Shown: piece after piece, positions 6,520 through 14,939 of the stretch
Layout: each line of letters opens with the position of its first letter
Numbering within the stretch: the first letter of the stretch is position 1
From: Tannerella sp.
GTDB taxonomy: Bacteria > Bacteroidota > Bacteroidia > Bacteroidales > Tannerellaceae
Direction of reading: 5' to 3'
Assembly (NCBI GenBank): GCA_031279875.1
Contig: JAITHS010000305.1
Coordinates: 1 to 14,939, forward strand
Length of the DNA: 14,939 nucleotides
The notes under the pieces: model-generated
The model's database searches: none
The model's input: only the letters and a program-made list of their open reading frames with translations
Told to the model about the DNA's origin: nothing
Program-made: the position numbers and the translations under genes

Positions 6520-6561
6520 CCCAAACCCTTGCAGCGGTTTAAAACCCTGCAAGGGTTTGGG
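6520..6561. repeat. Near-perfect palindromic hairpin repeat (copy 1)
   Basis: The arms 6520-6534 and 6547-6561 are perfectly complementary over 15 bp (CCCAAACCCTTGCAG with CTGCAAGGGTTTGGG). The enclosed 12 nt can extend the stem by GGTTT/AAACC with a one-base bulge. It lies between the divergent rhamnosidase and mtaB genes. A diverged copy is present at 14569-14612, so it is a dispersed repeat rather than a gene-specific terminator. No T-run follows on either strand. Confidence 0.75.
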
Positions 6562-6573
6562 CAGGCGTTAATT

Positions 6574-6660
6574 CGTAATTTTTAATTCGTAATCCGTAAT
6601 TTTTAATTCGTAATTCGTAATTTTTAATTCGTAATTCGTAATTTTTAATTCGTAATCCGT
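6574..6660. repeat. Four 21-bp tandem repeats plus partial copies
   Basis: The unit CGTAATTTTTAATTCGTAAT followed by C or T (21 bp) occurs at 6574-6594, 6595-6615, 6616-6636 and 6637-6657, then CGT at 6658-6660. Copies differ only at the last base (C, T, T, C). A partial unit (TTAATT) precedes the array. Read on the minus strand the unit encodes a repeated NYELRIK heptapeptide, but this is low-complexity translation, not a gene. The array abuts the mtaB -7 box. Confidence 0.9.
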
Positions 6661-6667
6661 ACCTTTG
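6660..6667 (+). promoter_or_regulatory. -7 box for mtaB, formed at the end of the tandem repeats
   Basis: TACCTTTG fits TAnnTTTG, 22 bp upstream of the mtaB ATG. Its first T is the third base of the fifth, partial CGT repeat unit, so the -33 zone consists of repeat sequence. Confidence 0.6.
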
Positions 6668-6689: not shown

Positions 6690-7994
6690 ATGACCTGTAA
6701 GGATATATTTAGCGATAAAACCGTTGCGTGGTTCACGCTGGGCTGCAAATTGAACTTTGCCGAGACTTCAACTATCGGCAAACAGTTTGCCGCACTCGGC
6801 ATCCGCAAGGCACGACAAGGAGAAGAGGCCGACTACTGCGTCGTCAATACCTGCTCGGTAACCGAACTTGCCGACAGAAAATGCCGTCAGATGATACGCA
6901 AAATCATCAAACTGCACCCAAACGCATTTGTCATTGTAACAGGCTGTTACGCCCAACTCAAACCCGAAGATATAACAGCCATAGAGGGCGTTGACCTCGT
7001 TATCGGAGCTAACGTTAAAGCAGACCTGATATCAATACTCAAACAGCAAAACGCCGAAACCCCCGAAATTTCAAACGACCGAACAACATTTTTTCCCGCC
7101 TGTTCAGCCGACGACCGCACACGACATTTCCTCAAAGTACAAGATGGCTGCGACTGTTTCTGTTCATACTGCACTATTCCGATGGCACGCGGGCGCAGTC
7201 GCAACGGCGCTATTGCCGACATTGTAATGCAGGCAACGGAAGTAGCGCGCACCGGCGGCAAAGAAATCGTCCTTACCGGCGTCAATATCGGTGATTTCGG
7301 CAAAACGACAGGAGAAAAATTTATCGACCTTCTCAAAGCGCTTGATCATGTAGAAGGTATCGAAAGATACCGTATTTCTTCGATAGAACCGGATCTTATT
7401 ACCGATGAAATCGTATCATTTGTGTCGGAAAGCAAGCATTTTATGCCTCATTTTCATGTCCCTCTGCAAAGCGGATGCGATGCCGTTCTTAAACTTATGC
7501 GCCGTCGTTATGACACAAAACTTTTCAGCGACATAATACTGAAAATCAAACATTTGTTGCCCGACGCATTTATCGGCATCGACGTTATTGCGGGAATGCG
7601 CGGAGAAACGGAAGAGTATTTCCTTAACAGCAAGGCTTTTATAGAGAGTTTGCCGTTTTCGCAACTGCATGTATTTACCTATTCGGAGCGTCCCGACACG
7701 AAAGCGCTGACTATCGAACCGGTGGTGCCTCACACTGTTAGACATGAACGCACTCGCCAACTTATCGAACTGTCCGACAGCCGTTTAAATCTGTTTTATG
7801 ACGCATATACCGGCAAAACGGCCAACGTATTATTTGAACATGCGCAAAAAAAAGGCTTCATGTATGGCTTTACCGAAAACTATATTAAAGTTGAAATACC
7901 TTATAATAAGGCTCTTTGCAACACCGTATGCTCTGTCAAAATGACAGGTTGGAATGACACACGAACAGTGCAGAAAGCAGAACCGAATTTCTAA
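6690..7994 (+). CDS. mtaB: tRNA (t6A37-C2) methylthiotransferase MtaB
   Basis: The 434-residue radical-SAM enzyme adds a methylthio group to C2 of N6-threonylcarbamoyladenosine at position 37 of ANN-decoding tRNAs. The N-terminal UPF0004 domain holds the three cysteines of the auxiliary 4Fe-4S cluster: C19 (TLGCKLNFAE), C55 (NTCSVT) and C86 (TGCYAQ). The radical-SAM CxxxCxxC is C154/C158/C161 in DGCDCFCSYCTIP. A TRAM-like RNA-binding tail occupies about residues 370-425 (GKTANVLFE ... YIKVEIP). The GCKLNFAE context and the length favour MtaB over MiaB or RimO. There is an extra cysteine, C156, inside the radical-SAM loop where aromatic residues are usual. It appears to be transcribed alone from 6660-6667; speA has its own promoter downstream. 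Confidence 0.92.
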   Translation: MTCKDIFSDKTVAWFTLGCKLNFAETSTIGKQFAALGIRKARQGEEADYCVVNTCSVTELADRKCRQMIRKIIKLHPNAFVIVTGCYAQLKPEDITAIEGVDLVIGANVKADLISILKQQNAETPEISNDRTTFFPACSADDRTRHFLKVQDGCDCFCSYCTIPMARGRSRNGAIADIVMQATEVARTGGKEIVLTGVNIGDFGKTTGEKFIDLLKALDHVEGIERYRISSIEPDLITDEIVSFVSESKHFMPHFHVPLQSGCDAVLKLMRRRYDTKLFSDIILKIKHLLPDAFIGIDVIAGMRGETEEYFLNSKAFIESLPFSQLHVFTYSERPDTKALTIEPVVPHTVRHERTRQLIELSDSRLNLFYDAYTGKTANVLFEHAQKKGFMYGFTENYIKVEIPYNKALCNTVCSVKMTGWNDTRTVQKAEPNF

Positions 7995-8012
7995 GTGTTT
8001 TTTTATCCAATG

Positions 8013-8044
8013 TTTGAATATTCTGAAAAATTTATCTAATTTTG
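8013..8044 (+). promoter_or_regulatory. Bacteroidota -33/-7 promoter of speA
   Basis: TTTG at 8013-8016 and TAATTTTG at 8037-8044 are separated by 20 bp, which suits the Bacteroidota sigma-ABfr consensus. The -7 box ends 34 bp before the speA ATG. Confidence 0.7.
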
Positions 8045-8078
8045 CGCCCTCAAAACATTAAAAACAGATAGAAACAAC

Positions 8079-10096: not shown

Positions 10097-10318
10097 ATGT
10101 ATTGGACATTAGAATTAGCATCCAATCTTGAAGATGCACCCTGGCCGGCCACCAAAGACGAACTTGTTGATTACGCGCAACGTTCGGGAGCGCCGTTGGA
10201 AGTGATTGAAAATTTGCAGGAAATGGAAGATGAAGGCGAGATCTACGAATGCATGGAAGATATCTGGCCTGATTATCCGAGTAAAGAAGATTTTTTCTTT
10301 AACGAAGAAGAATATTAA
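10097..10318 (+). CDS. DUF2795-family acidic micro-protein
   Basis: The 73-residue protein reads MYWTLELASNLEDAPWPATK and continues with DELVDYAQRSGAPLEVIENL. The segment PATKDELVDYAQRSGAP...VIENL is the DUF2795 signature, a small helical domain of unknown function. The second half is strongly acidic and ends FFFNEEEY. Very similar stand-alone proteins of this size are common in Bacteroidota and usually conserved, so this is a real gene despite its length. It has its own -7 box and is flanked by promoters on both sides. There is no signal peptide or membrane segment, so it should be cytoplasmic. No function can be assigned. Confidence 0.85.
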   Translation: MYWTLELASNLEDAPWPATKDELVDYAQRSGAPLEVIENLQEMEDEGEIYECMEDIWPDYPSKEDFFFNEEEY

Positions 10319-13735: not shown

Positions 13736-14317
13736 ATGAAGAAATCAAATGTTTATACCCGTACGGGCGATGCCGGAATGACGTCATTAGTCGGCGGCGC
13801 CCGTGTACCTAAAACGCATCCGCGCCTCGAAGCCTACGGTACGATAGATGAATTGAACTCTTTTATCGGGCTTCTTGTTGCCGAAATGACGGATGCCCCC
13901 ACCCTACGCAGGACGTCGGAAACAAATATTTTGCAATCGCTCTCCGTCATTCAGTCCAAACTGTTCGACATCGGCGCATACCTCGCTACCGACCCCGAAC
14001 AGACATCTTTCACACCCGCCGCCGCCGTTACGGACGAAGACATCAAATATCTCGAAGAAGCCATTGACCTGATAGACGACAAGTTACCGAAGATGAAATC
14101 ATTCGTCATCCCCGGCGGATGCAAAACGGCAGCGTTAATACACGTTTGCCGTACCGTTTGCCGCCGCGCCGAACGCGCTATGTTTGCCATAGAAACACCC
14201 AATTCGTTAAACGGCAGCTCTCTACCTATCACTTATATCAACAGATTGTCGGATTATCTGTTTGTTATGGCCAGATATGAATGTATCTCAAATACAGGGT
14301 CAGAAGTGTTTCTTTAA
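13736..14317 (+). CDS. PduO-type corrinoid adenosyltransferase
   Basis: The 193-residue cytoplasmic enzyme transfers the adenosyl group of ATP to cob(I)alamin or cobinamide to make the coenzyme B12 form used by mutases such as methylmalonyl-CoA mutase. The ATP-binding N-terminus YTRTGDAGMTSLVGGARVPK (residues 7-26) is the PduO signature; M15 replaces the common Thr. RLEAYGTIDELNS (30-42), IPGGCKTAALIHVCRT (125-140), CRRAER (142-147) and YINRLSDYLFVMAR (167-180) complete the motif set of the five-helix bundle. The length is typical. It is the last gene of the tex unit, separated by 9 bp from the peptidase, and its stop is followed 3 bp later by the palindrome array. Confidence 0.95.
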   Translation: MKKSNVYTRTGDAGMTSLVGGARVPKTHPRLEAYGTIDELNSFIGLLVAEMTDAPTLRRTSETNILQSLSVIQSKLFDIGAYLATDPEQTSFTPAAAVTDEDIKYLEEAIDLIDDKLPKMKSFVIPGGCKTAALIHVCRTVCRRAERAMFAIETPNSLNGSSLPITYINRLSDYLFVMARYECISNTGSEVFL

Positions 14318-14320
14318 TTA

Positions 14321-14553
14321 CATACGTATGCGTTGAAAATTTCATGCGTATGCGTTGAAAATTGCATGCGCATGCGTTGAAAATTACATGCGCATGCGTT
14401 GAAAATTACATGCGCATGCGTTGAAAATTACATGCGCATGTAAGTGATCGTTACATACGTATGTAATTTTCAACGCATGCGCATGTAAGTGATCGTTACA
14501 TACGTATGTAGGTGATCGTTACATACGTATGTAATTTTCAACGCATGCGCATG
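14321..14553. repeat. Array of eleven 10-bp palindromes with 12-13 bp spacers
   Basis: Palindromes of the form CATRCGYATG (one hybrid, CATGCGTATG) start at 14321, 14343, 14365, 14387, 14409, 14431, 14454, 14476, 14499, 14522 and 14544. The first five spacers are CGTTGAAAATTA or a one- or two-base variant (12 bp, 22-bp pitch). After 14440 the spacers are TAAGTGATCGTTA or TAGGTGATCGTTA (13 bp) and TAATTTTCAACG (12 bp), the latter being the exact reverse complement of the first type. Every palindrome is a strictly alternating pyrimidine-purine tract. It is not a CRISPR: repeats and spacers are too short and spacers recur. It starts 3 bp after the adenosyltransferase stop codon and could also act as a transcript 3' structure. 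Confidence 0.93.
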
Positions 14554-14568
14554 TAAGTAATGACGGAA

Positions 14569-14612
14569 CCCAAAACCCTTGCAGTGGTTTTAAACCCTGC
14601 AAGCGGTTTGGA
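14569..14612. repeat. Palindromic hairpin repeat (copy 2, diverged)
   Basis: CCCAAAACCCTTGCAG (14569-14584) and CTGCAAGCGGTTTGG (14597-14611) match the repeat at 6520-6561 with a few substitutions and a one-base length change in the left arm. The inner GGTTTTAAACC (14586-14596) is also conserved. The stem is less perfect than in copy 1. Confidence 0.7.
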
Positions 14613-14614
14613 GC

Positions 14615-14654
14615 TAACGCCCTGTATCATTGCGAGGGCGTTAACGTACAGGGC
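14615..14654. repeat. Two overlapping, mutually exclusive inverted repeats
   Basis: TAACGCCC (14615-14622) pairs with GGGCGTTA (14636-14643). GCCCTGTA (14619-14626) pairs with TACAGGGC (14647-14654). The two stems share the GCCC at 14619-14622 and cannot form together. CATTGCGAG inside this block (14629-14637) is repeated at 14661-14669, in the left arm of the next element. Confidence 0.65.
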
Positions 14655-14657
14655 ATT

Positions 14658-14726
14658 CGTCATTGCGAGGTACGAAGCAATCCAGAAGGAATGGCACGCT
14701 GGATTGCTTCGTACCTCGCAATGACG
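14658..14726. repeat. Perfect 28-bp inverted repeat (CATTGCGAGG-type palindromic element)
   Basis: The arms 14658-14685 and 14699-14726 are exactly complementary over 28 bp, with a 13-nt loop (AAGGAATGGCACG). The arm starts CGTCATTGCGAGG and ends GAAGCAATCCAG. This text is familiar as a widespread non-coding palindromic repeat in many bacterial genomes. Its minus-strand translation produces the spurious CEVRSNPA/WIASYLAMT peptides often annotated as proteins. No T-run follows directly on either strand, so it is not a classical terminator. Confidence 0.9.
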
Positions 14727-14838
14727 TGGTGCTTTCTGCCTTCTGCTTTCTCCTATTTTTTTTAAATTAATGCAATTTTTTATACACATCACACAATTTT
14801 TTTATACAAGCTACGTTTTTAAGTCATAAACATAAACT

Positions 14839-14846
14839 TAATTTTG
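14839..14846 (+). promoter_or_regulatory. -7 box for the last, partial gene
   Basis: TAATTTTG fits TAnnTTTG. The preceding stretch 14727-14838 is AT-rich with a pyrimidine run (14733-14754) and no recognised gene. Transcription would begin close to 14852, at or just after the first candidate ATG. Confidence 0.55.
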
Positions 14847-14894
14847 CCTATGATGAAATTATTACCTGTTGTGTCAGTATCTGACAGAAAAAAA

Positions 14895-14939
14895 ATGAAA
14901 AAAGAAAATCCCGGTCCGCGAACCGAAACATTGTTGATT
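14895..14939 (+). CDS. Start of an unidentified gene (runs off the right edge)
   Basis: An open frame enters the right edge with in-frame ATGs at 14850, 14853 and 14895. The first two lie at the expected transcription start and would give a leaderless message (MMKLLPVVSVSDRKK). The third, preceded by an A-rich run as is common in Bacteroidota, gives MKKENPGPRTETLLI and a leader of about 40 nt, so it was preferred. Only 15 residues are visible and no family can be named. Whether this is a full gene depends on sequence outside the window. Confidence 0.4.
   Translation, partial: MKKENPGPRTETLLI

What the first reader, a model, noticed from the sequence alone, without database searches (positions are those of the whole stretch)
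14321..14553. Phased array of eleven alternating pyrimidine-purine palindromes with an orientation switch
Eleven 10-bp palindromes (CATACGTATG, CATGCGTATG or CATGCGCATG) recur every 22-23 bp, close to two helical turns, so equivalent faces line up. Each is a strict pyrimidine-purine alternation, extending in places to 14-15 bp (for example TACATGCGCATGCGT at 14385-14399), the classic composition of Z-DNA-prone sequence. The first half has one directional spacer; the second half has its exact reverse complement plus a second 13-bp spacer, so the array changes direction after 14440. Substitutions preserve the palindrome in ten of eleven copies (A/T pairs exchanged for G/C pairs on both sides), which suggests selection on dyad symmetry. 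Candidate roles are a multi-site dimeric protein binding array, a nucleoid or segregation site, a recombination target, or a transcript-end structure. I do not recognise it as a named element.
Basis: partly seen in the sequence, partly recalled or inferred. Interest (0 to 1): 0.78.

Follow-up and report, generated by a model that had tools for sequence, protein, structure and literature searches.

The report
HU-linked 22-bp palindrome repeat array
This is a row of eleven short mirror-symmetric DNA sites, about two helix turns apart, of a kind that in related bacteria usually sits beside a gene for an HU-like chromosome-packing protein, which suggests that these proteins may each have their own landing strip on the chromosome.

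Summary
The array is real: 11 CATRCGYATG cores at 22-23 bp, 10 perfect palindromes, starting 3 bp after a cobalamin adenosyltransferase gene. It is not a one-off. Its spacer-plus-core 19-mer (one mismatch allowed) occurs in 5 of 123 genomes of the family: this one and four others, each time at the 3' end of an HU-family gene (HU_rel, Pfam HU-HIG), intact in one, decayed or cut by a contig end in three. Following that lead, 47 of 59 HU_rel genes in the genus have a tandem array of 20-24 or 42-46 bp period within 500 bp, against 3.3% of random places, 2 of 29 adenosyltransferase genes and 5 of 127 intergenic gaps at lag 22-23. Unit sequences differ between loci; the 22-bp period stays. Other families of the order repeat it (18 of 31). 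Best reading: rows of dimer sites for the neighbouring HU_rel protein; the window copy is an orphan, no HU_rel being found in its contig. The family tie is well supported; protein binding is inferred. Z-DNA is not the shared property. Rivals: RNA hairpins, or a neutral minisatellite kept symmetric by template switching.

The parts
14321..14553 (.). Phased array: eleven CATRCGYATG cores at 22-23 bp, ten of them perfect palindromes
14331..14430 (+). First half: five 12-bp spacers CGTTGAAAATT(T/G/A) between cores 1-6 (14331-14342, 14353-14364, 14375-14386, 14397-14408, 14419-14430)
14441..14543 (-). Second half: 13-bp spacers TA(A/G)GTGATCGTTA at 14441-14453, 14486-14498, 14509-14521, and the inverted 12-bp spacer TAATTTTCAACG at 14464-14475 and 14532-14543
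   Evidence: the 19-mer shared with HU_rel 3' ends in other genomes lies here on the - strand at 14454-14472 and 14522-14540
13736..14317 (+). PduO-type cob(I)alamin adenosyltransferase gene; the array starts 3 bp after its stop codon
   Evidence: Pfam PF01923 E 5.2e-61, TIGR00636 E 3.8e-53
14573..14609 (.). Dispersed AAACCCTTGCAG repeat; the same repeat follows the array of the own HU_rel gene in C151. A neighbour, not claimed as part of the array
14658..14726 (.). Dispersed CATTGCGAGG inverted-repeat element (arms 14658-14685 and 14699-14726). A neighbour, not claimed as part of the array
   Evidence: like elements beside the two single-unit remnants in C231 and C257

Best explanation
The array is an orphan member of a family of about 22-bp, often dyad-symmetric, tandem arrays that accompany genes for HU_rel (HU-HIG) proteins in Bacteroidales. 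Most likely each unit is a site for one HU_rel homodimer; spacing of two helical turns puts the dimers on one face of the DNA, so that they assemble side by side into a local nucleoprotein block that sets the expression of the HU_rel gene and its neighbour or insulates one transcription unit from the next. In the window the block lies directly behind the adenosyltransferase gene, with no HU_rel gene found in the contig, and would be bound in trans. Shown: the array, the shared 19-mer with HU_rel 3' ends, the HU_rel-array association, a constant period with changing sequence. Inferred: binding, cooperation, regulation.
For: 19-mer in 5 of 123 family genomes, outside the own genome only at HU_rel 3' ends (G002 by eye). 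47 of 59 HU_rel genes have a 20-24/42-46-bp array within 500 bp; with no period fixed beforehand 44 of 59 pass and 39 of these lie at lag 21-23. Controls: 3.3% and 6.0% of random places, 7 of 600, 2 of 29 PduO genes, 8 of 127 intergenic gaps, 5 at lag 22-23. Order level: 18 of 31 by TRF, 17 of 31 at lag 21-23. Palindrome centres in HU_rel flanks lie 11, 22 and 44 bp apart; unit symmetry over the set p 1.2e-7. Array likeness follows HU_rel likeness (rho 0.29, 0 of 2000 permutations). HU_rel has the HU fold; HU and IHF act as symmetric dimers (established).
Against: No HU_rel gene or remnant in the window. Arrays also occur away from HU_rel: G031 (three), G032, G058, G009, G038. Only 11 of 46 units in the genus and 3 of 17 in the order are singly more symmetric than shuffles. 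12 of 59 HU_rel genes had no TRF array and 13 of 31 in the order; five Bacteroidales plasmid-record genes had none. Near-identical HU_rel proteins (88%) can have unlike arrays, which does not suit strict sequence-specific binding. No 11-bp composition signal that would mark curved DNA. HU proteins are generally held to bind with little sequence specificity. No binding data.
Confidence: 0.42

Rival explanations
1. It works as RNA: transcribed from the adenosyltransferase gene (or from HU_rel in relatives), the array folds into long hairpins that protect, process or end the transcript.
For: RNA fold z -12.0 on the + strand and -15.6 on the - strand. 38 of 47 HU_rel arrays fold with z below -2 on at least one strand. 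30 of the 47 lie downstream of HU_rel. G031 units keep a stem round a CATA loop by paired changes.
Against: 17 of 47 arrays lie only upstream of HU_rel. Both strands fold about alike (median z -3.6 and -3.1), as DNA symmetry predicts; the shuffles there do not keep the tandem order, so z overstates. No terminator-like site on the + strand, one on the - strand inside the array. No Rfam match.
Confidence: 0.25
2. It is a neutral minisatellite. Units grow and shrink by slippage; quasi-palindrome correction by template switching keeps them symmetric without selection; HU_rel loci merely lie in repeat-rich, variable regions.
For: Copy number varies, one unit in G027 and five in G029 at matching sites (by eye). 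Array sequence turns over fast. The window's intergenic region also holds two other dispersed repeats. Period 22-23 is also the commonest lag among the few arrays of control intergenic gaps (5 of 8).
Against: Association with HU_rel far above controls, one prevailing period in unrelated sequences and families, and like placement, up- or downstream, in most of the closest HU_rel pairs.
Confidence: 0.24
3. It is a mobile element of the MITE-with-minisatellite type, like BrickBuilt.
For: The array sits at a synteny break in this genome; single-unit remnants elsewhere; G031 has three related arrays with a like leader; inverted end spacers in G002 and G029 (by eye).
Against: Only one full array in the own genome; no common terminal inverted repeats or target duplications were shown; in relatives the element stays at the HU_rel 3' end. 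No transposase search was made.
Confidence: 0.06
4. The cores form Z-DNA under supercoiling.
For: All eleven cores here alternate pyrimidine and purine.
Against: Many units of related arrays do not alternate. Z-forming energy was not computed.
Confidence: 0.03

Closest known systems
BrickBuilt MITE/minisatellite of Porphyromonas gingivalis (PMC4596501, passages read)
   Same: Bacteroidales, intergenic, 23-nt tandem units, copy number varies between strains, predicted stem-loops.
   Different: Unit AGAYCATARTATCCTCTCRTRTG is another sequence; it has leader and tail with IS5-type terminal inverted repeats and 19 copies per genome; its table of neighbouring genes, as far as shown to me, lists no HU gene.
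REP/BIME palindromic elements of enterobacteria (recalled)
   Same: Intergenic palindromic units, often at gene 3' ends, in clusters of alternating orientation.
   Different: Recalled units are longer, hairpin-forming and of one sequence family per genome; here the period is about 22 bp and the sequence differs by locus. No REP-type transposase was looked for.
Helically phased operator, iteron or parS-type arrays (recalled)
   Same: Repeated dyad or direct sites about two turns apart beside the gene of their binding protein.
   Different: Those serve dedicated sequence-specific proteins; here the neighbour is an HU-family protein, and binding is unproven.
HU-HIG (PF18291) / HU_rel (TIGR01201) paralogue expansion of Bacteroidetes (family names; the paper on the HU-HIG clade is recalled and not held)
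   Same: The protein next to the related arrays belongs to it.
   Different: I recall no array in that work and could not check it.

Membership tests
HU_rel-associated 22-bp array (proposed here) | Tandem units at about 22 bp, often with a dyad | tested here: met
   Steps 22-23, ten of eleven cores palindromic
HU_rel-associated 22-bp array (proposed here) | HU_rel gene within 500 bp | tested here: not met
   None found in the window; the contig ends 386 bp after the array. I therefore call it an orphan, tied to the family by sequence and not by neighbourhood
HU_rel-associated 22-bp array (proposed here) | Sequence shared with arrays at HU_rel 3' ends | tested here: met
   19-mer in 5 of 123 genomes, four of them at HU_rel 3' ends
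HU_rel-associated 22-bp array (proposed here) | Bound by the HU_rel protein | not testable with these tools
   Needs a binding assay
BrickBuilt MITE | 23-nt unit AGAYCATARTATCCTCTCRTRTG | tested here: not met
   Unit read in PMC4596501 compared by eye with the units
BrickBuilt MITE | Leader and tail with IS5-type terminal inverted repeats | not tested
   Not searched for in the window
Known structured RNA (Rfam) | Match at the gathering score | tested here: not met
   No match in the window
Z-DNA-forming element | Pyrimidine-purine alternation shared by the family | tested here: not met
   Cores here alternate; units of many related arrays do not
Intrinsic terminator of the adenosyltransferase gene | Stem-loop followed by a T-run on the + strand | tested here: not met
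   Scan of 14200-14939 gives terminator-like sites on the - strand only
REP/BIME | Associated REP-type tyrosine transposase | not tested
   No such search was made

The most novel reading that the evidence does not exclude
HU_rel (HU-HIG) paralogues of Bacteroidales and their neighbouring 22-bp arrays are two-part cassettes: each paralogue has a private, fast-diverging, helically phased landing array, so that a supposedly unspecific chromatin protein family has split into many locus-specific architectural regulators, with the period rather than the sequence under selection.
Probability: 0.35. Interest if true: 0.82.

Novelty: new variant of a known kind. Interest (0 to 1): 0.6.

Why it matters
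HU-family proteins are known as largely unspecific nucleoid proteins, yet genomes of this genus carry up to 18 TIGR01201 matches, sub-cut-off ones included, of unclear purpose. An array of constant period beside most HU_rel genes gives each paralogue a candidate target and makes the question directly testable: bind, footprint, delete. It also gives a search rule, since the period is constant while the sequence is not.

Tried and rejected
Z-DNA as the shared trait: rejected, many related units do not alternate. Curvature from helically phased composition: no 11-bp signal (mean z -0.05, SE 0.17, n 47; the 22-bp signal is weak, 0.74, SE 0.24). Old feature of the adenosyltransferase locus: rejected, none of 29 relatives has two such cores in series. 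Known RNA: no Rfam match. Viral origin: no exact 20-mer in the viral contigs; a single-protein search there gave 21 stretches and no HU_rel relative, which finds close relatives only. HU_rel remnant beside the window array: none.

Limits of the counts. The TRF filter (20-24 and 42-46) was chosen after one search had shown 22-bp arrays; one search repeats the test over lags 12-40. Low-complexity TRF arrays (for example L150 downstream, L256) were not removed. Of the 12 HU_rel genes without a TRF array (flanks printed), by eye four (L129, L162, L174, L178) have inverted-repeat units at about 21-23 bp, L130 has one unit, four are cut by contig ends (L131, L132, L157, L161) and three show none (L146, L152, L175); these readings are not in the counts. 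At the order level I examined 31 of 45 over-cut-off genes outside the own genome, and 6 of 10 plasmid records. Seven weaker HU matches (L138-L144) were seen only: no 22-bp array, one 21-bp array of 2.0 copies in L142. Control stretches are 298 kb of G022, 100 kb of G013 and 154 kb of the own genome, and the own part holds two HU_rel genes. Of 14 control units tested for symmetry 1 had p at or below 0.05. Pair distances come largely from copies within arrays and are not independent.

Full report
What is there. The window is contig C125 of a 2.79-Mb draft genome in 410 contigs. At 14321-14553 lie eleven 10-bp cores, CATACGTATG, CATGCGCATG and once CATGCGTATG, at steps of 22 or 23 bp; ten are perfect palindromes. 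The spacers are CGTTGAAAATT(T/G/A) five times, then TAATTTTCAACG twice and TA(A/G)GTGATCGTTA three times. The array begins 3 bp after the stop codon of a PduO-type adenosyltransferase gene. The core occurs at 16 places of the assembly, 11 of them here. A nucleotide search of the own genome gives, below E 1e-3, only two further places, each of a single unit, C231:239-264 and C257:536-557; both lie beside the dispersed CATTGCGAGG repeat.

Relatives of this array. A search of 100 genomes (own included) gave matches at E below 1e-3 outside the own genome in G001, G002, G029 (two loci), G032, G035 and G058 (two loci). In G001 and G029:C269 the array follows an intact 125-aa HU_rel gene (L092 9733-10110, L094 9988-10365). 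In G029:C246 and G002 the contig begins inside codons that read as the end of such a gene, 14 and 7 residues, by eye. In G035 a 27-residue HU_rel C-terminus precedes a single unit (E 7.3e-6). In the stretches fetched from G032 and G058 no HU_rel was found. The 19-mer TGAAAATTACATACGTATG, searched in 123 genomes of the family with one mismatch allowed, hit 5: the own genome, G001, G002, G035 and, with one mismatch, G161 of another genus, where it follows a decayed HU_rel end (E 0.06, supported by eye). So outside the own genome each place with this 19-mer is at a HU_rel 3' end, two of the four on weak or by-eye evidence (G002, G161).

The wider pattern. I then asked whether HU_rel genes in general have arrays. 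Of 59 HU_rel genes over the TIGR01201 cut-off in 41 genomes of the genus, 47 have a TRF array of period 20-24 or 42-46 within 500 bp, 30 downstream and 17 upstream only. With no period fixed beforehand (lags 12-40, 50-bp windows, 400-bp flanks) 44 of 59 pass, 39 of them at lag 21-23 and 34 at exactly 22. Controls: 3.3% of random gene-sized places in G022/G013 and 6.0% in the own genome by TRF; 7 of 600 random places, 2 at lag 22; 2 of 29 adenosyltransferase genes; and the strictest, 8 of 127 intergenic gaps, 5 at lag 22-23, in a sample whose own-genome part includes two HU_rel genes. So 22-bp arrays are not confined to HU_rel genes, but are far commoner there. In other families of the order 18 of 31 examined HU_rel genes (of 45 over cut-off) have such arrays by TRF, 17 of 31 at lag 21-23. 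Five HU-HIG genes on plasmid records of Bacteroides, Parabacteroides and Phocaeicola have none; one of Treponema saccharophilum has a 21-bp array upstream.

What is conserved. Unit sequences differ between loci (AAAAGGTATATACCTTTTACCC, AAAACGATAACTATCGTTTCCC, and AAACAAAGCTTGATTTGAAGTC in the own genome), but the period does not: among non-overlapping arrays in 54.7 kb of HU_rel flanks 32 have period 22 and 10 have 44, against 7 of period 22 and none of 44 in 552 kb of control. Distances between palindrome centres stand out at 11, 22 and 44 bp, with none at 22 in the control, which has its own peak at 42. Symmetry of the units exceeds shuffled units over the set (46 arrays, p 1.2e-7; order 17 arrays, p 0.018), but only 11 of 46 and 3 of 17 do so singly. 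Array likeness follows HU_rel likeness (rho 0.29, 0 of 2000 permutations), yet pairs at 88% protein identity can have unlike arrays. The three G031 arrays, with no HU_rel found near, keep a stem round a CATA loop: 117 of 153 cells pair against at most 111 in 500 shuffles, and 16 double changes against at most 15; the units are related, so this is support and not proof.

The window copy. It is an orphan: no HU_rel gene or remnant was found in the window, and the contig ends 386 bp on, in an open frame of 30 residues that shows no likeness to HU_rel. It lies at a synteny break: in the relatives the adenosyltransferase gene is followed by the gene that starts MYWTLELAS (25 of 29 by script; the other 4 by eye), a DUF2795 gene that in this window sits upstream, at 10097-10318. 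The own genome has three HU_rel genes over cut-off: C151 with a 22-bp array downstream, C409 with one upstream, C331 with none seen. After the C151 array come the same dispersed repeats as after the window array, AAACCCTTGCAG and CATTGCGAGG; these repeats are dispersed, so this is a hint only.

How it may work. HU_rel has the HU fold by profile, by model and by fold comparison; HU and IHF act as two-fold symmetric dimers (established). A dyad every two helical turns is what a row of dimers on one face of the DNA would want. I therefore take the arrays as docking rows for the adjacent HU_rel, with local control or insulation of transcription as the effect; this is inference. RNA hairpins (z -12.0 and -15.6; 38 of 47 HU_rel arrays below -2 on at least one strand) and passive repeat growth with template-switch correction stay serious rivals. 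The repeats also give four weak promoter-like matches on the + strand (9 in the region against 3.1 in shuffles), which I do not weigh.

Print. BrickBuilt (PMC4596501; passages read, not the whole text) is the nearest described Bacteroidales minisatellite that I found, with another unit. The searches (listings and abstract openings only) showed no report of arrays beside HU_rel genes in the held open library. Subscription papers, among them the paper on the HU-HIG clade that I recall (not held), could not be checked.

Noticed in passing
G031:C54:8830-9147, C199:1640-1763, C270:6009-6280 (L097, L098, L099): Three arrays of 23-bp units with the same CATACGTATG core but another spacer; stems round a CATA loop change on both sides together, and each array follows a like T-rich leader.
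   Followed up: partly
G038:C89:11012-11273 (L112) and G009:C97:13268-13445 (L113): Arrays of about 21-bp units with GTACNNGTAC-type cores, 12.9 and 11.3 copies by TRF, with no HU_rel found near.
   Followed up: partly
window 10097-10318 and 13736-14317: Synteny break: in relatives the DUF2795 gene follows the adenosyltransferase gene; here it lies 3.4 kb upstream, before Tex.
   Followed up: partly
window 6523-6558 and 6569-6661: Further repeats: an AAACCCTTGCAA-type repeat and a 7/21-bp TAATTCG array.
   Followed up: no
L275 (Treponema saccharophilum plasmid pTS1, NZ_AP025289.1): An HU-HIG relative outside Bacteroidota, the best-scoring plasmid hit (86 bits), with a 21-bp array upstream.
   Followed up: no
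L130 (G027:C88) versus L122 (G029:C269): Matching flanks after related HU_rel genes hold one inverted-repeat unit in G027 and five units in G029, read by eye: growth or shrinkage at one site.
   Followed up: partly
L202 at 7639-8061 (G013:C58) and L204 at 14864-15544 (G013:C149): Large 42-bp arrays of 10 and 16 copies with no HU_rel match in those stretches.
   Followed up: no
HU_rel loci such as L131, L132, L157, L161: Several HU_rel genes lie at contig ends, so draft assemblies tend to break beside them.
   Followed up: no
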